A DNA stretch of 64,000 nucleotides, from NCBI RefSeq assembly GCF_000378005.1, contig NZ_KB899040.1, forward strand, positions 1,131,145 through 1,195,144, in the 5' to 3' direction. Every line of letters begins with the position of its first letter. The first letter of the stretch is position 1. A program made the position numbers and the translations under genes. The stretch is from Coprothermobacter platensis DSM 11748 (lineage in GTDB: Bacteria > Coprothermobacterota > Coprothermobacteria > Coprothermobacterales > Coprothermobacteraceae). Positions 2,315-11,879 of this stretch are shown here, piece by piece. The notes below the pieces were generated by a model that had not been told where the DNA came from, searched no databases, and saw nothing but the letters and a program-made list of their open reading frames with translations.

Positions 2315-3474
2315 AATTAAGCCAGCAGCTTATAAAATTGAAATATACAATCGTAATGTCATTTGTTGATAACGTAAGCGCCATAGGAAAAATGCAATCA
2401 ATAATCAACCTAAAAAAATAGCCCAACTTATACCTAATATGAACCTTTAATAAACGGTCTTGATTAGTTCTTAGATGTGCCTCCTCGCTTTTCATGCAAG
2501 ATCAAGTAACATGAATATTCCCGTGCTTCTCTCAACCATACGTTTTGCTCCTTCAGCTTTATAGTCTTCAAACTTCAAAGCAAAACCAACTTCCCCTTTA
2601 GCAGCCAGCGGTTTTTTACAACGTCTTGCCCCAATAATGTAATCGTACACCAAGTAGGCTTGAGAAGCCTAAGCACCTGCCTCATCATAGTTGTTTTACC
2701 AGCACCGTCGGGAGCCTATAAAACATACCAGCAATCTCATGTTACATAACACCAAGATTTACGAAAGGACACTGAGAAACTACTCTTTCGAAGACGGCAA
2801 CCTATCACATGGATCTTGTGCGGCTTCCTTTCGTATCGTTATTTTAGCTGTCAAGAGCTATAGAAAAAGTAATCAGTATGGCCGAGGTTTGAAGTGGCAA
2901 AGATGTATGAAGGCAAGCTTCCTAAACGTAAATACCAATTAAAACTAGCAACTTTTTATACAACAGACTTTACTGTATAATCCTCAGCTTTAACTAGAGC
3001 TTCAAGGTTCTGCTTCAGCAAATCAATTGCATTTTGCAAATGTAAAATGCTGATAGTGCAGAACTTATTAGCCATTTGACACAAGAAACCCCCAAAAAAA
3101 AATGAAGCACATGAGTCGATCGCACTTAGAGAGCCGTGTTATACGCTCAAATAAGATTTATTGAGGTTTAATCGCTCACTCTATCTTTAAATTTTTTGTA
3201 CTATTTTTCCCGGCGGTCATGCTCGTGAAACTAGACTTATGATGTTCAAATATCCATGCATCGTCAAATAGGAAGGAATAAGAAAGTTGACATATAAACA
3301 GAGTCGATGAAGCTATTTCTTCCCTAAAACTTTCAAGGTACTTTGTTGTAACTACCTGTGCTTCTATGACGATATGGAATTATTCTGCAGACTAGAGTGG
3401 CAATTATATCTGTTATTATATGAACATATTCCCCTACTGAGGAATATACAAAATCTTTAGAAGGGAATTACGTG
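2315..3474. other. gene-poor interval
   Basis: About 1.16 kb with no convincing intact gene. The minus strand holds an ABC ATPase remnant (2492-2715). A 39-codon minus-strand frame at 2956-3075 is free of stops but has no SD and no recognisable family, so it is not called. The rest is AT-rich with many stops in all frames. The interval looks like a zone of gene decay next to the peptide-exporter locus. Confidence 0.5.
2492..2715 (-). pseudogene. decayed ABC transporter ATP-binding fragment
   Basis: Reading the minus strand from 2715 gives a 46-codon segment containing a Walker A motif (D-G-A-G-K-T-T) followed by a 'LLKPT...LLGQDV'-like stretch, as found after the P-loop of ABC ATPases. It ends at a stop at 2575-2577. 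A second segment in another frame (to the stop at 2492-2494) ends in 'FMLLDLA', which could be a worn Walker B, but that part is weak. A stop lies directly upstream of the Walker A frame. This is a relic, not a functional gene; the family call rests mainly on the P-loop. Confidence 0.5.
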
Positions 3475-3564
3475 ATGGAAGCCGTTCAGGTGAAGTCTAG
3501 CAACGCAGAAAACGTTATCGTTGTCCCTAACAATTGTGGGGTTCACAAGAAGGAAGCTGAGTAA
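3475..3564 (+). CDS. 29-residue peptide ORF, candidate RiPP precursor
   Basis: A short ORF of 29 codons starts at ATG 3475 (or GTG 3472) with a GAAGGG ribosome site (3460-3465) 6-9 nt upstream. The peptide is hydrophilic, has one Cys at residue 22 in the context P-N-N-C-G-V-H, and a charged tail K-K-E-A-E. It lies just before a radical SAM/SPASM gene and two ABC exporter genes, the usual place for a modified-peptide precursor. It matches no family I recognise. It is in the same frame as the radical SAM gene, separated by TAA and TAG, so it could instead be the broken-off start of that protein. Function not established. Confidence 0.3.
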   Translation: MEAVQVKSSNAENVIVVPNNCGVHKKEAE

Positions 3565-3579
3565 TTCACGTGCTAGAAA

Positions 3580-4206
3580 GTGAAAGGTGATACTTGCATC
3601 ATGCATAGCTTCCCAGAAGGCTTTCTCGGGAAAGCCATCTTTTGTGTTAGTTCTATCTGTAATCCCAGTTGCGTTTATTGTTATGAAAAAGAAAACTTTT
3701 TTGATGTTAATGCAGCACCCATAATGGATAAACAAAGTGCAGACCGTGCACTTGAATATATATTGAACAATTACGTAGATATACTTCGTGTTAGCTTTTT
3801 TGGTGGGGAACCTCTCCTGAATTTCTCAGTCATTGAAGCGCTACTGTATGGCCTAGGAAGCGATACCTTTTGTTTTGAGCTTTCTAAAGGATACTCAGAG
3901 ACCTTCGATACGAAAGGCGAACGTCATCCCTGCTTTAGACTTATAAATTATGATGTTGATGATGAACTTGTAAAAGCTTGTAATTCGAAGAATAATAATC
4001 TCTGTAAAAATTGTTGGGCCAAGAATATTTGCCGCAGTTGTACAGCGAATATCCTTTCAAGTCGGGATTTGCCTTTTTTATCCGGTTATGAATGTAAAAA
4101 AAGACAAGGTTACCAATACGCATTGCAGCATTTTGTGGGTATATTGGAGGAAGCACCGGATCACTTTCAAAGAATTGTCGACAATTATGTCTACTTTAGC
4201 AATTAA
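3580..4206 (+). CDS. radical SAM/SPASM peptide maturase, internally shortened
   Basis: The N-terminal part has the radical SAM [4Fe-4S] motif C27-x3-C31-x2-C34 followed by Tyr, and a G-G-E-P motif at residues 75-78. The C-terminal part has a Cys cluster C142-x2-C145-x5-C151-x2-C154 (C-K-N-C-W-A-K form), as in SPASM maturases that install thioether or C-C links in ribosomal peptides. At 208 residues it is about half the length of such enzymes: only ~64 residues separate GGEP from the SPASM cluster, so much of the TIM-barrel core is missing, apparently by in-frame deletion near residues 90-100. The start is GTG 3580 or ATG 3601; neither has a clear SD. It is probably non-functional, or works with another subunit. 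Two exporter genes follow directly. Confidence 0.7.
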   Translation: MKGDTCIMHSFPEGFLGKAIFCVSSICNPSCVYCYEKENFFDVNAAPIMDKQSADRALEYILNNYVDILRVSFFGGEPLLNFSVIEALLYGLGSDTFCFELSKGYSETFDTKGERHPCFRLINYDVDDELVKACNSKNNNLCKNCWAKNICRSCTANILSSRDLPFLSGYECKKRQGYQYALQHFVGILEEAPDHFQRIVDNYVYFSN

Positions 4207-4230
4207 TTAGAGGGGAATAGTCGATGTGAA

Positions 4231-6042
4231 TTGAAAACATATAATCCATTTATGAAAGATAAGCTGGGCGTGGCTAATCTTGTGCAAATTGTACCGCATT
4301 ATTCACCACTGGAAGCCGTTTTTTTGGGTGCTCTGAATGTATGTGGGGGCATTGTCCCTACTGTTTATCTATTGGCAACTTCTAAATTCATTGATTCGGC
4401 TATAAGTTTTTCGAAGAATGGCTCAGGCAAAAACAGCATCTTCTTATTTATATTCATCATGGTAATTTGTACTGCTTATATGTGGCTTTACCCACTTTTA
4501 GTGGAGTTAATTGCTACTAAGCTTGAAAACAATTTAAGAAAAAGCTTTCGCATCGATTTGACAACGAACATTGCATCAGTTAGATACGATTATATCGAGA
4601 ACCAAGAAAGCATGGATCTCATATCGCGTGTATGCAGGGAGCCTGAAGCAAGAGCATCCCAATCTTACCAGCGTATGCTCAGCGCCTTTGGCCTAATCTT
4701 GAAGATTGGTGGTATCATGGTCATACTTTTTTTGCGTGTTTGGTGGGCCACCTTAGTAGTCGCAGGCATAGCGGCTCTTGTATTCATGGTAGCCATGAAG
4801 GGTGGAGAAGAGAACTACGAAGCGGAAAGGTTAGCAGAAAAGCACAATAGAAAAGCGCATTATCTGTCCGAGGTTTTGCAAGGGCGCGATGCGGTGCATG
4901 AACGGACAATTTTCGACTATTCGGAAAAGGTAAATGAATGGTGGCACAGCCAATATGAAACAGCGAGGAAAATAAAGTTAAGTGCAAGTCTTAAGTGGCT
5001 TAAGGAATCTGAGATAAGTGGCATACTGACGTCTCTTATGATATTGGGCATTATTCTTGTGCTTGTAGTACCGCTTAAAAATGGGGCACTTTCCATAGGG
5101 CTTTATATTTCTATCATAAACAGCATCATAGCACTTATTCCAGATCTTTCGTGGGAACTGCCAGAATATACAGAAGCCATTGCAGAAGATAAAGAATACC
5201 TTTCCGATTTAAGTGGTTTATTAAAACTCCAGCATAATAAAGAATGGTTATCTACTCCTAGCAGTAAGGTCTCAGATGTAGAATCGATAGAATTTAGGAA
5301 TGTGACTTTTTCTTACCCTGGTCTATGCCGAGATGTACTTAAGAATGTATCTTTTCTCATGGAAAAGGGCAAACATTACGCTATTGTAGGCGCCAATGGT
5401 TCTGGTAAAACTACAATCACAAAATTGCTTACAGGTTTATATAACGATTTTTCTGGACAAATACTTATAAATGGTATCCCCATAGGAGCCTATAGCTCAT
5501 CTGAACTTAAATCCATGTTCGCCATAGTGTATCAGGATTTTGCCAAATATGGCATTTCTCTTTTTGACAATATAGCTATTGGCAATGTGAACAACTTTGA
5601 CGAAGATAAAGTCTATGAAGCCATAAATGAAATGGAACTTAGTAGCCTTATAGAATCTTTGCCTGAGGGAGTTTTAACTTCTTTAGGGCGGATAAGCGAA
5701 GGAAGTGTAGATTTATCAGGTGGACAGTGGCAGCGCATTGCAACAGCAAGAGCACTGGTAAGCAATGCTTCGGTAAGAATATTGGATGAACCGACAGCCG
5801 CTTTGGATCCTATAAGTGAAAGCAAACTTTACGAGAATTTTGAGAAGATTAATAAAGGAAAAACGACCATACTTATAAGCCACCGTTTGGCCTCAACAAA
5901 ACTTGCTGACGTCATTTTTGTCTTTGATGACGGAAGCATTGTGGAACAAGGCAATTATGAAAAATTGATGAGTATGGATGGTATTTACTCAACGATGTTT
6001 AATAGTCAGAGAAGTTGGTACATCTATGGCACAGAAGAATAA
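4231..6042 (+). CDS. ABC exporter half-transporter (membrane plus ATPase domains)
   Basis: Membrane exporter subunit. Residues ~20-320 contain about five or six hydrophobic segments and residues ~350-600 form the ATPase: Walker A G-A-N-G-S-G-K-T-T near 388, signature L-S-G-G-Q-W-Q near 496, Walker B I-L-D-E-P near 517, H-loop S-H-R near 550. The 'SGGQWQ' signature is frequent in exporters of modified peptides. There is no C39 leader-peptidase domain. It overlaps the next, similar gene by 17 nt if that starts at 6026, so the two probably form a heterodimer. Start uncertain: TTG 4231 is the first start after an upstream stop; ATG 4252 is an alternative. Substrate unknown; the adjacent maturase suggests a peptide. 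Confidence 0.85.
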   Translation: MKTYNPFMKDKLGVANLVQIVPHYSPLEAVFLGALNVCGGIVPTVYLLATSKFIDSAISFSKNGSGKNSIFLFIFIMVICTAYMWLYPLLVELIATKLENNLRKSFRIDLTTNIASVRYDYIENQESMDLISRVCREPEARASQSYQRMLSAFGLILKIGGIMVILFLRVWWATLVVAGIAALVFMVAMKGGEENYEAERLAEKHNRKAHYLSEVLQGRDAVHERTIFDYSEKVNEWWHSQYETARKIKLSASLKWLKESEISGILTSLMILGIILVLVVPLKNGALSIGLYISIINSIIALIPDLSWELPEYTEAIAEDKEYLSDLSGLLKLQHNKEWLSTPSSKVSDVESIEFRNVTFSYPGLCRDVLKNVSFLMEKGKHYAIVGANGSGKTTITKLLTGLYNDFSGQILINGIPIGAYSSSELKSMFAIVYQDFAKYGISLFDNIAIGNVNNFDEDKVYEAINEMELSSLIESLPEGVLTSLGRISEGSVDLSGGQWQRIATARALVSNASVRILDEPTAALDPISESKLYENFEKINKGKTTILISHRLASTKLADVIFVFDDGSIVEQGNYEKLMSMDGIYSTMFNSQRSWYIYGTEE

Positions 6043-7810
6043 ACAAGGTTCTTTTTTCTCAACGATTTTTCGCATAATACCTATTGTTATAAAGATGTAC
6101 CCACTGCAGCTCTTAAGCATATGCACCATTGATTTACTTCTTGGTATGTTTCTTGGTTTGAACACTATTGCTTTAGACAGATTCTTCCATGCTATTCAGT
6201 ATTACGCCGTAGGGAGTACACCGTTCGCAAACATTTTTTATGCGCTTTTGTTTCTTTTCGTATGCATCGCGGCTAATCCAGTTCTTAATGGCTTTAATGA
6301 CGTTATTTCCTTCGATTATGAGCGTAAGGTTACAGGAAAGCTTGGGGAAATGCTCAATAGGAAGTGCGAAAAACAGGACCCAGTTAACTTCGAAGATATT
6401 ACCTTTCTTGAAAAGATAAACAAAGCCCAAGAGGGGCTAAAAAACACGTTCAAATTGGCAATAGATATATTAGATGCCCTTTTTGCTTATATCCCATATT
6501 TTTTGGTCATAAGTGTTTATTTATATAGATTAAGCCCCATGCTCCTTCTGGTCATTGTACTATTCTTTGTGCCTGATATCTTCTCCCAAGCTTTTAAGGG
6601 CAGATTATATACAAAACTGGAAGATAATGTGGCTCCTATCAGAAGGAAGTATGAACATTACGAGCAATGCATCATAGGTAAGGATTATTTTAAAGAAACA
6701 CGTTCTTTGGGCGCGTTTAACTACTTTTCTAATGTATATAAAGGAGCTTTGGCTTCGCTGAACCACGAAACAATGAAAACGCAGGTTCAATCAGCTCGTA
6801 TTGAACTCACATTTAAATTGTTCACCCTGTCAGGTTACGTTGGTACATTGCTCTTGCTTGTTATGTACTTACTAAATGGCACCATATCTGTAGCCAGTTT
6901 TGGAGCTGTGTTGGCATCCATCGATATGCTTATGAGTATGCTTGAGCAATTCATTTTTTATGTTTTAGGTAGAAGCATGAAAAGAGTAGGTAGCGTGAAT
7001 AACTTTCTAAGCTTCTTAACTGAAGAACAATATCAAGGCAAAAAGGCAATACTCAGGGAAGCTCCAGAAATCATTGTAAGAAGTGTATCTTTTAGTTATC
7101 CAGGAAGCACAGAAAAAGCCATATCAGATGTCTCACTAGTCATTCACAGCGGTGAAACAGTTGCCATTGTGGGTGAGAATGGAGCCGGTAAAAGCACGTT
7201 CGTAAAGCTACTTTGTGGCCTGTATATTCCCGACAAAGGCACTATTATTGTAGGTGGACATGATACACGCGATATTGATAGGGAAACACTTATGGCTGGT
7301 ATGTCCTGTGTTTTTCAGCATTATCAACGCTATAAAATGACCTTAGCACAAAATGTATTTATAAGTAACACCAAAACGGAAATGGATCAAGAAAAGGTTG
7401 AACGGTCTTTACAAAAAGCAGATCTTTCTGTGAGAAAAGAGATATTCCCTGAAGGCGAAGATACGATGTTATCTCGCGAGTTCGATGGTATTGATTTATC
7501 GGGTGGACAGTGGCAAAAGGTGGCTATAGCCAGAGGGTTTTATAGAGCTCACTATATGATTCTTCTTGACGAACCTACATCTGCTATAGATCCTACTCAG
7601 GAGACAAAGCTGTATCGTACATTTATGGAACTATCCAAAGATAAAACGTCCATCATTGTTACGCACAGGCTTGCACTTACCAGTGTTGCGGACCGCATTC
7701 TAGTTATGGATCATGGCCACATCGTTCAAGAAGGGACCCATGAGGAGCTGATGGCTCATGACGGGCTTTACAAACGTATGTACCTTGCTCAGAGTAAATG
7801 GTACAAATAA
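6026..7810 (+). CDS. ABC exporter half-transporter, partner of the upstream gene
   Basis: A second fused membrane-ATPase exporter subunit of 594 residues. Walker A is G-E-N-G-A-G-K-S near residue 383, signature L-S-G-G-Q-W-Q near 491, Walker B L-L-D-E-P-T near 513, H-loop T-H-R. The N-terminal ~320 residues hold the membrane segments. I chose ATG 6026 because the protein then aligns with the start of its partner; the frame is open further upstream to 5978. The overlapping genes suggest translational coupling and a heterodimeric exporter. The locus ends here; the next genes run on the opposite strand, and I see no terminator in 7811-7933. Confidence 0.85.
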   Translation: MAQKNKQGSFFSTIFRIIPIVIKMYPLQLLSICTIDLLLGMFLGLNTIALDRFFHAIQYYAVGSTPFANIFYALLFLFVCIAANPVLNGFNDVISFDYERKVTGKLGEMLNRKCEKQDPVNFEDITFLEKINKAQEGLKNTFKLAIDILDALFAYIPYFLVISVYLYRLSPMLLLVIVLFFVPDIFSQAFKGRLYTKLEDNVAPIRRKYEHYEQCIIGKDYFKETRSLGAFNYFSNVYKGALASLNHETMKTQVQSARIELTFKLFTLSGYVGTLLLLVMYLLNGTISVASFGAVLASIDMLMSMLEQFIFYVLGRSMKRVGSVNNFLSFLTEEQYQGKKAILREAPEIIVRSVSFSYPGSTEKAISDVSLVIHSGETVAIVGENGAGKSTFVKLLCGLYIPDKGTIIVGGHDTRDIDRETLMAGMSCVFQHYQRYKMTLAQNVFISNTKTEMDQEKVERSLQKADLSVRKEIFPEGEDTMLSREFDGIDLSGGQWQKVAIARGFYRAHYMILLDEPTSAIDPTQETKLYRTFMELSKDKTSIIVTHRLALTSVADRILVMDHGHIVQEGTHEELMAHDGLYKRMYLAQSKWYK

Positions 7811-7933
7811 TCTTCACCCACCTCCTGAGCAGGAAAAGATCATACCATCATTTGCCTTTTTACTATTTGGGTAGACCTTCGTTAAGTTTTCTATCTTGGG
7901 AATCTTTTTCACAACGGAACCCGTCTTTCCAAT

Positions 7934-9870: not shown

Positions 9871-9970
9871 TTTAGGCTTTTACTTTGTAGCGACCATAGA
9901 CAACATCTAAAAAAACGATTAATACCATAAACGCAGAGTATGCAATCAAGTTATCTGAAAACAAAACCAT
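9871..9970. repeat. copy 1 of a ~100-bp near-identical tract
   Basis: Covers the 3' end of membrane paralog A. It matches 11318-11417 with only two base differences that I count, in the same orientation about 1.45 kb away. Confidence 0.85.
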
Positions 9971-10426
9971 TATAAAACCGATAGTGGCGCAGATGCAGAA
10001 CAACCACCCCAATGCTTTGACGTTCTCCCTGTACAAAAGAGAAAGTGCAAATATGTTGAACATGATAGTAACCACAGTACCACTCACACAACAATTTCTG
10101 GAAAATCCAAGAATGTCTAGTGGGCTCATGAATCTTTTGCTATTCACATAGAGACTTAGAAGAACAGCTACTAAACTAACTGCTAAGAAAAACATCATAA
10201 GCAGGGACCCATTTGCTATCAGTTTGTATTCTTTAGTTTCTGGAGTCAGCACACCGGTATCGTCCCTCGCGGAAAGAAAATCAGAATAAACCATGCATAA
10301 AATTGATACGGTCCATACTACAATACCGAAGTAAGTTGCACTTTTCATGGATGCTAACGGAGCAATATAAAGCACAGAAAGCCCGTTCGTCAAAGCAATC
10401 TTTCTTTTAAAATCATTCCTACCCAT
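9872..10426 (-). CDS. multi-pass membrane protein, paralog A
   Basis: A 184-residue protein with about five hydrophobic segments and no recognised family. The start ATG 10426 has GGGAGG upstream; the frame continues to 10444 but that start has no site. It is a clear paralog of 11319-11879: the same layout, a shared 'NIFALSLLY' segment and an identical C-terminal tail (D-V-V-Y-G-R-Y-K-V-K-A). The last ~100 bp of the two genes are almost identical in DNA, far more alike than the rest. It lies with its paralog on either side of a secreted protein gene on the same strand. Function unknown. Confidence 0.65.
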   Translation of the reverse strand: MGRNDFKRKIALTNGLSVLYIAPLASMKSATYFGIVVWTVSILCMVYSDFLSARDDTGVLTPETKEYKLIANGSLLMMFFLAVSLVAVLLSLYVNSKRFMSPLDILGFSRNCCVSGTVVTIMFNIFALSLLYRENVKALGWLFCICATIGFIMVLFSDNLIAYSAFMVLIVFLDVVYGRYKVKA

Positions 10427-10550
10427 AAAACCTCCCGTTCTCAATCCAAACTGTATTCGCTCTCTCCATCAAACGAAATCAAATACTGATAACTAAATGG
10501 TACATTCGTGCCAATCATCACTTAGTCTTCAGTACGCATGTACCATCTTT

Positions 10551-11317: not shown

Positions 11318-11417
11318 TTTAGGCTTTTACTTTGTAGCGACCATAGACAACATCTAAAAAAACGATTAATACCATAAACGCACAGTATGCAATCAAGTTA
11401 TCTGGAAACAAAACCAT
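11318..11417. repeat. copy 2 of a ~100-bp near-identical tract
   Basis: Covers the 3' end of membrane paralog B and the base before its stop. See copy 1 at 9871-9970. Confidence 0.85.
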
Positions 11418-11879
11418 GCAAAAACTGATAAGAGCACAAACAAAGAACAAGTCGACTAACGTTGTATGATTTTCCTTATACAAAAGAGAAAGTGCAAATA
11501 TGTTGTACATGATAGTCGTAACGGCGTAGCCTACAAAGCAGTTTCTGAAGATTTCAACGGTGTTCAAAGGGCCTACAATTCCTTTGTCATTGAGGTAAGC
11601 AATTAGAAGCACAGTCCCCACACCAACAAAAAAGAGCAATGCCATAAACACGAACCCCTTCACAATCGCTTTGTATTCACTGCTTTCCACGGGAAGCCTG
11701 TCATTAAAATCCTTTCTTCCAAAAAGTACAACAGAATAAAAGGTAATCAGACATGCTACAACTACTAATACCATGGTAAAAACATTCGGATCTTTGGCAA
11801 CTGCATAGCTGGTAAGCGCAATTAATGAACTTTCATTTATAAAGGTAATTCTCCCCTTAAAATCGCCTCTTTCTTTCAT
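11319..11879 (-). CDS. multi-pass membrane protein, paralog B
   Basis: A 186-residue membrane protein with about five hydrophobic segments, paralogous to 9872-10426. The start ATG 11879 has GGGGAGG upstream. The N-terminal two thirds differ strongly from paralog A, while the final ~30 residues are identical or nearly so. It is first in the minus-strand group that includes the secreted protein. No known family recognised. Confidence 0.65.
   Translation of the reverse strand: MKERGDFKGRITFINESSLIALTSYAVAKDPNVFTMVLVVVACLITFYSVVLFGRKDFNDRLPVESSEYKAIVKGFVFMALLFFVGVGTVLLIAYLNDKGIVGPLNTVEIFRNCFVGYAVTTIMYNIFALSLLYKENHTTLVDLFFVCALISFCMVLFPDNLIAYCAFMVLIVFLDVVYGRYKVKA

What the first reader, a model, noticed from the sequence alone, without database searches (positions are those of the whole stretch)
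3475..7810. Possible RiPP locus with a half-length radical SAM/SPASM protein
A 29-residue ORF with a good ribosome site and one Cys precedes a protein that has both radical SAM (C-x3-C-x2-C, GGEP) and SPASM Cys clusters but lacks roughly 100 or more residues of the barrel between them, and then two exporter half-transporters with 'SGGQWQ' signatures. Either this is a decaying modified-peptide system whose exporter survives, or a minimal maturase that works with a partner. The peptide matches no precursor class I know.
Basis: partly seen in the sequence, partly recalled or inferred. Interest (0 to 1): 0.7.

Follow-up and report, generated by a model that had tools for sequence, protein, structure and literature searches.

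The report
Broken streptosactin-like peptide operon, exporter intact
A thermophilic bacterium carries a foreign operon that probably once made a small sulfur-bridged peptide related to streptosactin; the enzyme that would build the bridges has lost the middle of its catalytic domain while the two export pumps behind it look intact, so this is most likely a decaying copy of a known kind of system.

Summary
A 29-residue one-Cys ORF (3475-3564) with a good ribosome site precedes a 208-aa protein with radical-SAM and SPASM cysteines, then two intact half-ABC exporters. Both halves of the 208-aa protein match the streptosactin maturase GggB (query 9-88 to profile 34-113; 84-206 to 270-394). An in-frame gap of about 161 residues (GggB 107-267) removes the middle of the barrel, including TNGT and SLDGP; all ten cysteines shared with the three GggB sequences are kept. 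No second short form appeared in about 490 genomes, no intact orthologue was found, and the missing piece is not elsewhere in this genome. The peptide weakly resembles one GggA precursor (MEAVQV...IVVPNNCG versus MEELQV...YVVNNNCG; shuffle p about 0.001) but lacks the second Cys and the GGG. The operon is inserted into remnants of an ABC-ATPase gene that is intact in a congener, so it arrived horizontally. Its exporters are closest (55-59%) to a clostridial pair that mostly stands without a maturase. Best reading: a horizontally acquired streptosactin-type RiPP locus with a dead maturase and a surviving exporter. A working minimal maturase is unlikely (about 7%).

The parts
2498..2755 (-). Left remnant of a resident ABC-transporter ATPase gene (Walker A region and following part), frameshifted and with stops
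   Evidence: tblastx to the intact 312-aa ATPase of the congener G002 (L171) at 2498-2712; DNA comparison extends it to about 2755
7841..7906 (-). Right remnant of the same ATPase gene (its N-terminal part, KIPKIENLTKVYPNSKKANDGM)
   Evidence: tblastx to L171, 64% identity over 22 residues in the syntenic place
2756..7840 (+). Inserted, horizontally acquired segment; boundaries uncertain by some tens of bases
   Evidence: The flanking genes are only about 1.45 kb apart in G001 and the intact ATPase-permease pair occupies the site in G002
3459..3466 (+). Shine-Dalgarno-like AGAAGGGA of the peptide ORF
   Evidence: sequence
3475..3564 (+). 29-residue peptide ORF, probable GggA-like precursor: MEAVQVKSSNAENVIVVPNNCGVHKKEAE
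   Evidence: position directly upstream of a gggB-like gene as in L125-L130; similarity to one GggA variant, shuffle p 0.0003-0.001; not matched by NF050037
3580..4206 (+). GggB-like radical SAM/SPASM maturase with internal in-frame deletion (208 aa from GTG; 201 aa from ATG 3601)
   Evidence: NF050038, two stretches; alignment A3
3658..3681 (+). CNPSCVYC, ligands of the SAM [4Fe-4S] cluster
   Evidence: alignment A3
3820..3860 (+). Deletion junction; 161 GggB residues (107-267) absent, placement uncertain by about ten codons
   Evidence: alignment A3
3871..4095 (+). SPASM-type cysteine region, seven cysteines conserved with GggB
4231..6042 (+). Half-ABC exporter 1 (603 aa, TTG start matching the start of its C. 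sulfidigenes relative)
   Evidence: 59% identical to L038
5978..7810 (+). Half-ABC exporter 2 (610 aa)
   Evidence: 55% identical to the second gene of the L038 pair; same order on a Clostridium plasmid

Best explanation
A horizontally acquired, streptosactin-type (GGG-like) RiPP operon whose maturase has been inactivated by an in-frame internal deletion. In the ancestral form a short GggA-like peptide was bound by a GggB-like radical SAM/SPASM sactisynthase that joined its Cys (C21 here) to the alpha carbon of a residue about three positions downstream; the product left the cell through a heterodimer of the two half-ABC proteins. Shown here: the gene order, the family of both maturase halves, the loss of about 161 barrel residues, retention of all ten cysteines shared with GggB, open exporter frames, insertion into a resident ABC-ATPase gene. 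Inferred: that the peptide is the precursor, that the bond was a sactionine, that the enzyme can no longer use SAM because TNGT, SLDGP and several barrel strands are gone, and that the exporter pair now works on its own as most of its clostridial relatives appear to do.
For: GggB is the only family matching both halves strongly; for the C half the next family is nearly eight orders of magnitude weaker. Real GggB sequences align in register on both sides of one large gap. The gap is not filled from elsewhere in the genome. No other genome shows the short form. Insertion into a decayed ATPase gene, absent from congeners. Exporters intact, with clostridial orthologues that mostly have no maturase next door. 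Peptide similar to one GggA variant and in the position of gggA.
Against: The deletion is in frame and all conserved cysteines survive while the neighbouring ATPase remnant is riddled with frameshifts, so the deletion is either recent or the short protein is still kept. The peptide similarity holds for one of three GggA variants only, and a three-sequence profile ranks it about eighth among 2,011 window ORFs. No intact orthologue was found, so the ancestral state is reconstructed from streptococci at 26-29% identity. Streptosactin loci have a different exporter.
Confidence: 0.68

Rival explanations
1. A functional minimal radical SAM/SPASM protein: the short form works with a partner (another radical SAM enzyme of the cell, or itself as a dimer), or serves as an Fe-S peptide-binding subunit that hands the peptide to the exporter.
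For: In-frame deletion, open frame, every cysteine shared with GggB retained; plausible ribosome site at ATG 3601; other radical SAM proteins exist in the genome.
Against: The lost block carries TNGT and SLDGP and several barrel strands; nothing in the genome supplies it; no second example in about 490 genomes searched with the protein; the single-sequence structure prediction was useless.
Confidence: 0.07
2. The 29-residue ORF is not a precursor: the maturase fragment is a relic, the short ORF is chance or a remnant of the former maturase N-terminus, and only the exporter pair has a present function.
For: Only one GggA variant resembles it; the others give p 0.19-0.41. It is in the maturase frame, with two stops between. 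One GggB N-terminus shows a weak likeness (NSENFTLSTSSDKCGIEINKE, p 0.05-0.25). The exporter pair usually stands alone.
Against: Good ribosome site; gggA position; the likeness to GggA reaches both the N-terminus and the NNCG core (p 0.0003-0.001); the GggB N-terminus comparison is weaker and its spacing to CxxxCxxC is wrong (24 against 41 residues).
Confidence: 0.25
3. Assembly or sequencing artefact: the maturase is full length in the organism and the middle was collapsed.
For: Only one assembly of the species was reachable. The two edges of the lost block resemble each other in GggB (NIDVFVYLI and VYDVLLSMI), which could favour a collapse.
Against: The assembly has two contigs; no exact long repeat lies at the junction; the same likeness would equally favour a real deletion.
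Confidence: 0.08

Closest known systems
Streptosactin (GGG subfamily RaS-RiPP; precursor GggA NF050037, maturase GggB NF050038)
   Same: Short peptide gene directly upstream of a radical SAM/SPASM maturase; both halves of the maturase match GggB, including its unusual C-terminal part; NNCG core in one GggA variant
   Different: Barrel middle deleted; peptide lacks the second Cys and the GGG; exporters are a clostridial pair; no Rgg regulator match in this genome; host is not a Streptococcus
Clostridial two-gene half-ABC exporter family (C. sulfidigenes L038; Clostridium plasmid CP026601)
   Same: Both genes in the same order, 39-59% identical, YQDFAKY and SGGQWQ
   Different: Mostly without a maturase upstream; where a radical SAM gene lies directly upstream (L039, L041) it is of another type
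SCIFF/ranthipeptide maturases (ScfB-type TIGR03974, PapB NF047865) and the solved sactisynthase 5wgg
   Same: Radical SAM half of the fragment matches them; 5wgg is the best solved structure for the GggB-plus-window profile
   Different: They match the C-terminal half weakly or not at all
NxxC subfamily RaS-RiPPs
   Same: Asn residues shortly before a Cys in the peptide
   Different: Maturase matches GggB best; no NxxC model was available to test

Membership tests
GggB streptosactin maturase (NF050038) | Match to the family profile over both the radical SAM half and the C-terminal half | tested here: met
   9-88 to 34-113 and 84-206 to 270-394, best family overall
GggB streptosactin maturase (NF050038) | Curated score cut-off of the equivalog model (650 bits) | tested here: not met
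   81 bits; so not filed as GggB itself, only as a truncated relative
GggB streptosactin maturase (NF050038) | Complete radical SAM barrel with SAM-binding motifs between the two cysteine regions | tested here: not met
   GggB 107-267 absent
GggB streptosactin maturase (NF050038) | Radical SAM CxxxCxxC and SPASM-type cysteines | tested here: met
   Ten cysteines invariant in A3
Streptosactin precursor (NF050037) | Match to the precursor model; two Cys with four-residue spacing and terminal GGG | tested here: not met
   No model match; one Cys, no GGG; similarity to one variant only
Sactipeptide pathway | Sulfur to alpha-carbon cross-link in the product | not testable with these tools
   Needs mass spectrometry
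Clostridial two-gene half-ABC exporter family | Two adjacent half-exporters homologous in the same order | tested here: met

The most novel reading that the evidence does not exclude
The 201-208-aa protein is a working minimal radical SAM/SPASM enzyme or Fe-S adaptor that acts on the 29-residue peptide with a partner: a streptosactin-type pathway reduced to the start of the barrel plus SPASM.
Probability: 0.07. Interest if true: 0.75.

Novelty: new member of a known kind. Interest (0 to 1): 0.3.

Why it matters
The GGG subfamily is listed only for Streptococcus hosts (PMC13361665). A relative of its maturase, even a broken one, in a genome of another phylum shows that this maturase type has travelled further than recorded and with a different exporter. 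It is also a tidy case of a RiPP operon losing its modifying enzyme while the pump stays open. The larger claim, a minimal maturase, would matter much more but is not supported.

Tried and rejected
Peptide as the maturase N-terminus: not preferred (two in-frame stops, wrong spacing, p 0.05-0.5 against three GggB N-termini). Intact maturase orthologue: sought in congeners and 98 relatives, 391 Clostridia, 398 genomes of the phylum with a C-half profile, viral contigs and plasmids; only generic radical SAM proteins or weak SPASM matches. GggB-type maturase next to the exporter relatives: none in 80 loci. Exporters as a RiPP-specific marker: rejected, since most relatives stand alone. Structure: single-sequence AlphaFold, mean pLDDT 31, no use. 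RNA element: none. Insertion ends: no long repeats; AAGAT occurs near both ends, too short to call a target duplication.

Full report
OBSERVATION. A 29-residue ORF (ATG 3475, AGAAGGGA eight bases before it) reads MEAVQVKSSNAENVIVVPNNCGVHKKEAE. A 208-residue ORF follows from GTG 3580; ATG 3601, preceded by AAAGGTGAT, is the likelier start. Then come two overlapping half-ABC exporters of 603 and 610 aa without internal stops.

WHAT THE MATURASE IS. The best family for the whole protein is the streptosactin maturase GggB (NF050038, E 7.8e-23). Tested separately, the N half matches profile 34-113 (2.4e-11; a few other maturase families score similarly there) and the C half 270-394 (1.1e-12; the next family is nearly eight orders of magnitude weaker). 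Real gggB genes were fetched from Lactobacillales genomes (L125-L130). Aligned with three of them (A3) the window protein keeps CxxxCxxC, FGGE, FC, CFR, CKxCW, CxxC and ECK in register. Ten cysteines are common to all; two further GggB cysteines are Ala here. About 26 N-terminal residues and one block, GggB 107-267, have no counterpart. That block carries TNGT and SLDGP, which from general knowledge of the superfamily belong to the SAM-binding part of the barrel. I infer that the protein cannot act as a radical SAM enzyme. The residues at the junction (FSVIEALLYG) align about equally well to either edge of the lost block, so the deletion may have run between similar short stretches; this is inference.

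IS THE SHORT FORM SEEN ELSEWHERE? The 208-aa query found only generic full-length radical SAM proteins in 98 relatives, in five exporter-bearing genomes and in 391 Clostridia. The two short frames in those lists (189 and 205 aa) lie at contig ends. A C-half profile found nothing above 24 bits in 398 genomes of the Clostridium phylum and nothing in plasmids or viral contigs. Full GggB searched in the own genome hits this locus in two pieces (38-114 and 270-394) plus ordinary radical SAM proteins, so the missing part is not encoded apart.

THE PEPTIDE. In the gggB loci a 34-35-aa gggA lies just upstream. One variant, MEELQVINLEDLLEFDQGYVVNNNCGPSHSCGGGR, resembles the window peptide at its N-terminus (ME..QV) and before the core (VV.NNCG). 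Shuffling gives p 0.0003-0.001; the two other variants give p 0.19-0.41. Among 2,011 short frames of the window it ranks first or second against that variant, but about eighth with a three-sequence profile. The NCBIfam streptosactin model matches the real GggA peptides and not this one. I take it as a probable, unproven precursor without the second Cys and GGG. Published bridges are Cys25-Ser28 and Cys31-Gly34 (PMC8172795); the counterpart here would be C21 to H24.

ORIGIN. No congener has orthologues of the maturase or exporters. In G001 the S8 protease and the following homologous block lie 1.45 kb apart, against 5.6 kb here. In G002 an intact minus-strand ABC ATPase and permease occupy the site. 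Pieces of that ATPase flank the window operon on both sides, frameshifted on the left. The operon is therefore an insertion into this gene, old enough for the gene to have decayed. The exporters are 59% and 55% identical to a Clostridium sulfidigenes pair, with differences concentrated at third codon positions (0.63 against 0.21-0.24 at second positions), as expected of purifying selection over most of that history.

THE EXPORTERS. Eighty genome loci carry relatives of the first exporter. A motif scan found a radical SAM gene directly upstream in two, L039 and L041, both of other types. In twenty further loci the upstream neighbours are unrelated genes (read by eye); L038 has a radical SAM gene downstream of the pair that does not look like a peptide maturase. 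The pair therefore usually stands alone, and its survival here says little about whether the peptide is still made.

ORGANISM. The genome is 1.42 Mb, and congener G001 has exactly 1,424,912 bases, from memory the size of Coprothermobacter proteolyticus DSM 5265. The window would then be another Coprothermobacter species.

CONCLUSION. A horizontally acquired, streptosactin-type operon with a maturase disabled by an in-frame deletion and an open exporter pair. Open points: the frame has stayed open, which leaves a small chance of a retained function; the precursor identity is suggestive only; and one assembly alone could be examined.

Noticed in passing
L039:5413-6935 (Clostridium sp. SIG252 MAG): Two similar short peptides (51 and 49 aa, MKKEEILTLLEEE... 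and MKREEIFNLLEED..., both with INIGRTSGM) directly before a 371-aa radical SAM/SPASM protein and the same exporter pair: a likely uncharacterised RiPP locus.
   Followed up: partly
L132:789-2685 (Lactobacillales genome G512): Two Gly/Cys-rich peptides (CGG repeats, 89 and 59 aa) before a PapB-like 457-aa maturase: a candidate ranthipeptide locus.
   Followed up: no
L131:1009-2631 (Lactobacillales genome G457): A 48-aa peptide ending WGINCRKGSFGIWCN before a 442-aa PapB-like maturase.
   Followed up: no
L029:7753-11369 (Clostridiaceae bacterium 14S0207 plasmid CP026601): Relatives of both exporters on a plasmid; the first gene is broken into two frames and the second is fused behind it as annotated, so that copy looks decayed.
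   Followed up: partly
window 2757-3458: About 700 bases of the insertion upstream of the peptide hold no recognisable gene, RNA family or similarity to the fetched loci; possibly decayed operon parts.
   Followed up: partly
window 9872-10444 and 11319-11879 (minus strand): Two paralogous membrane proteins (190 and 186 aa) with an identical C-terminal end (VLIVFLDVVYGRYKVKA), a recent tandem duplication or gene conversion.
   Followed up: no
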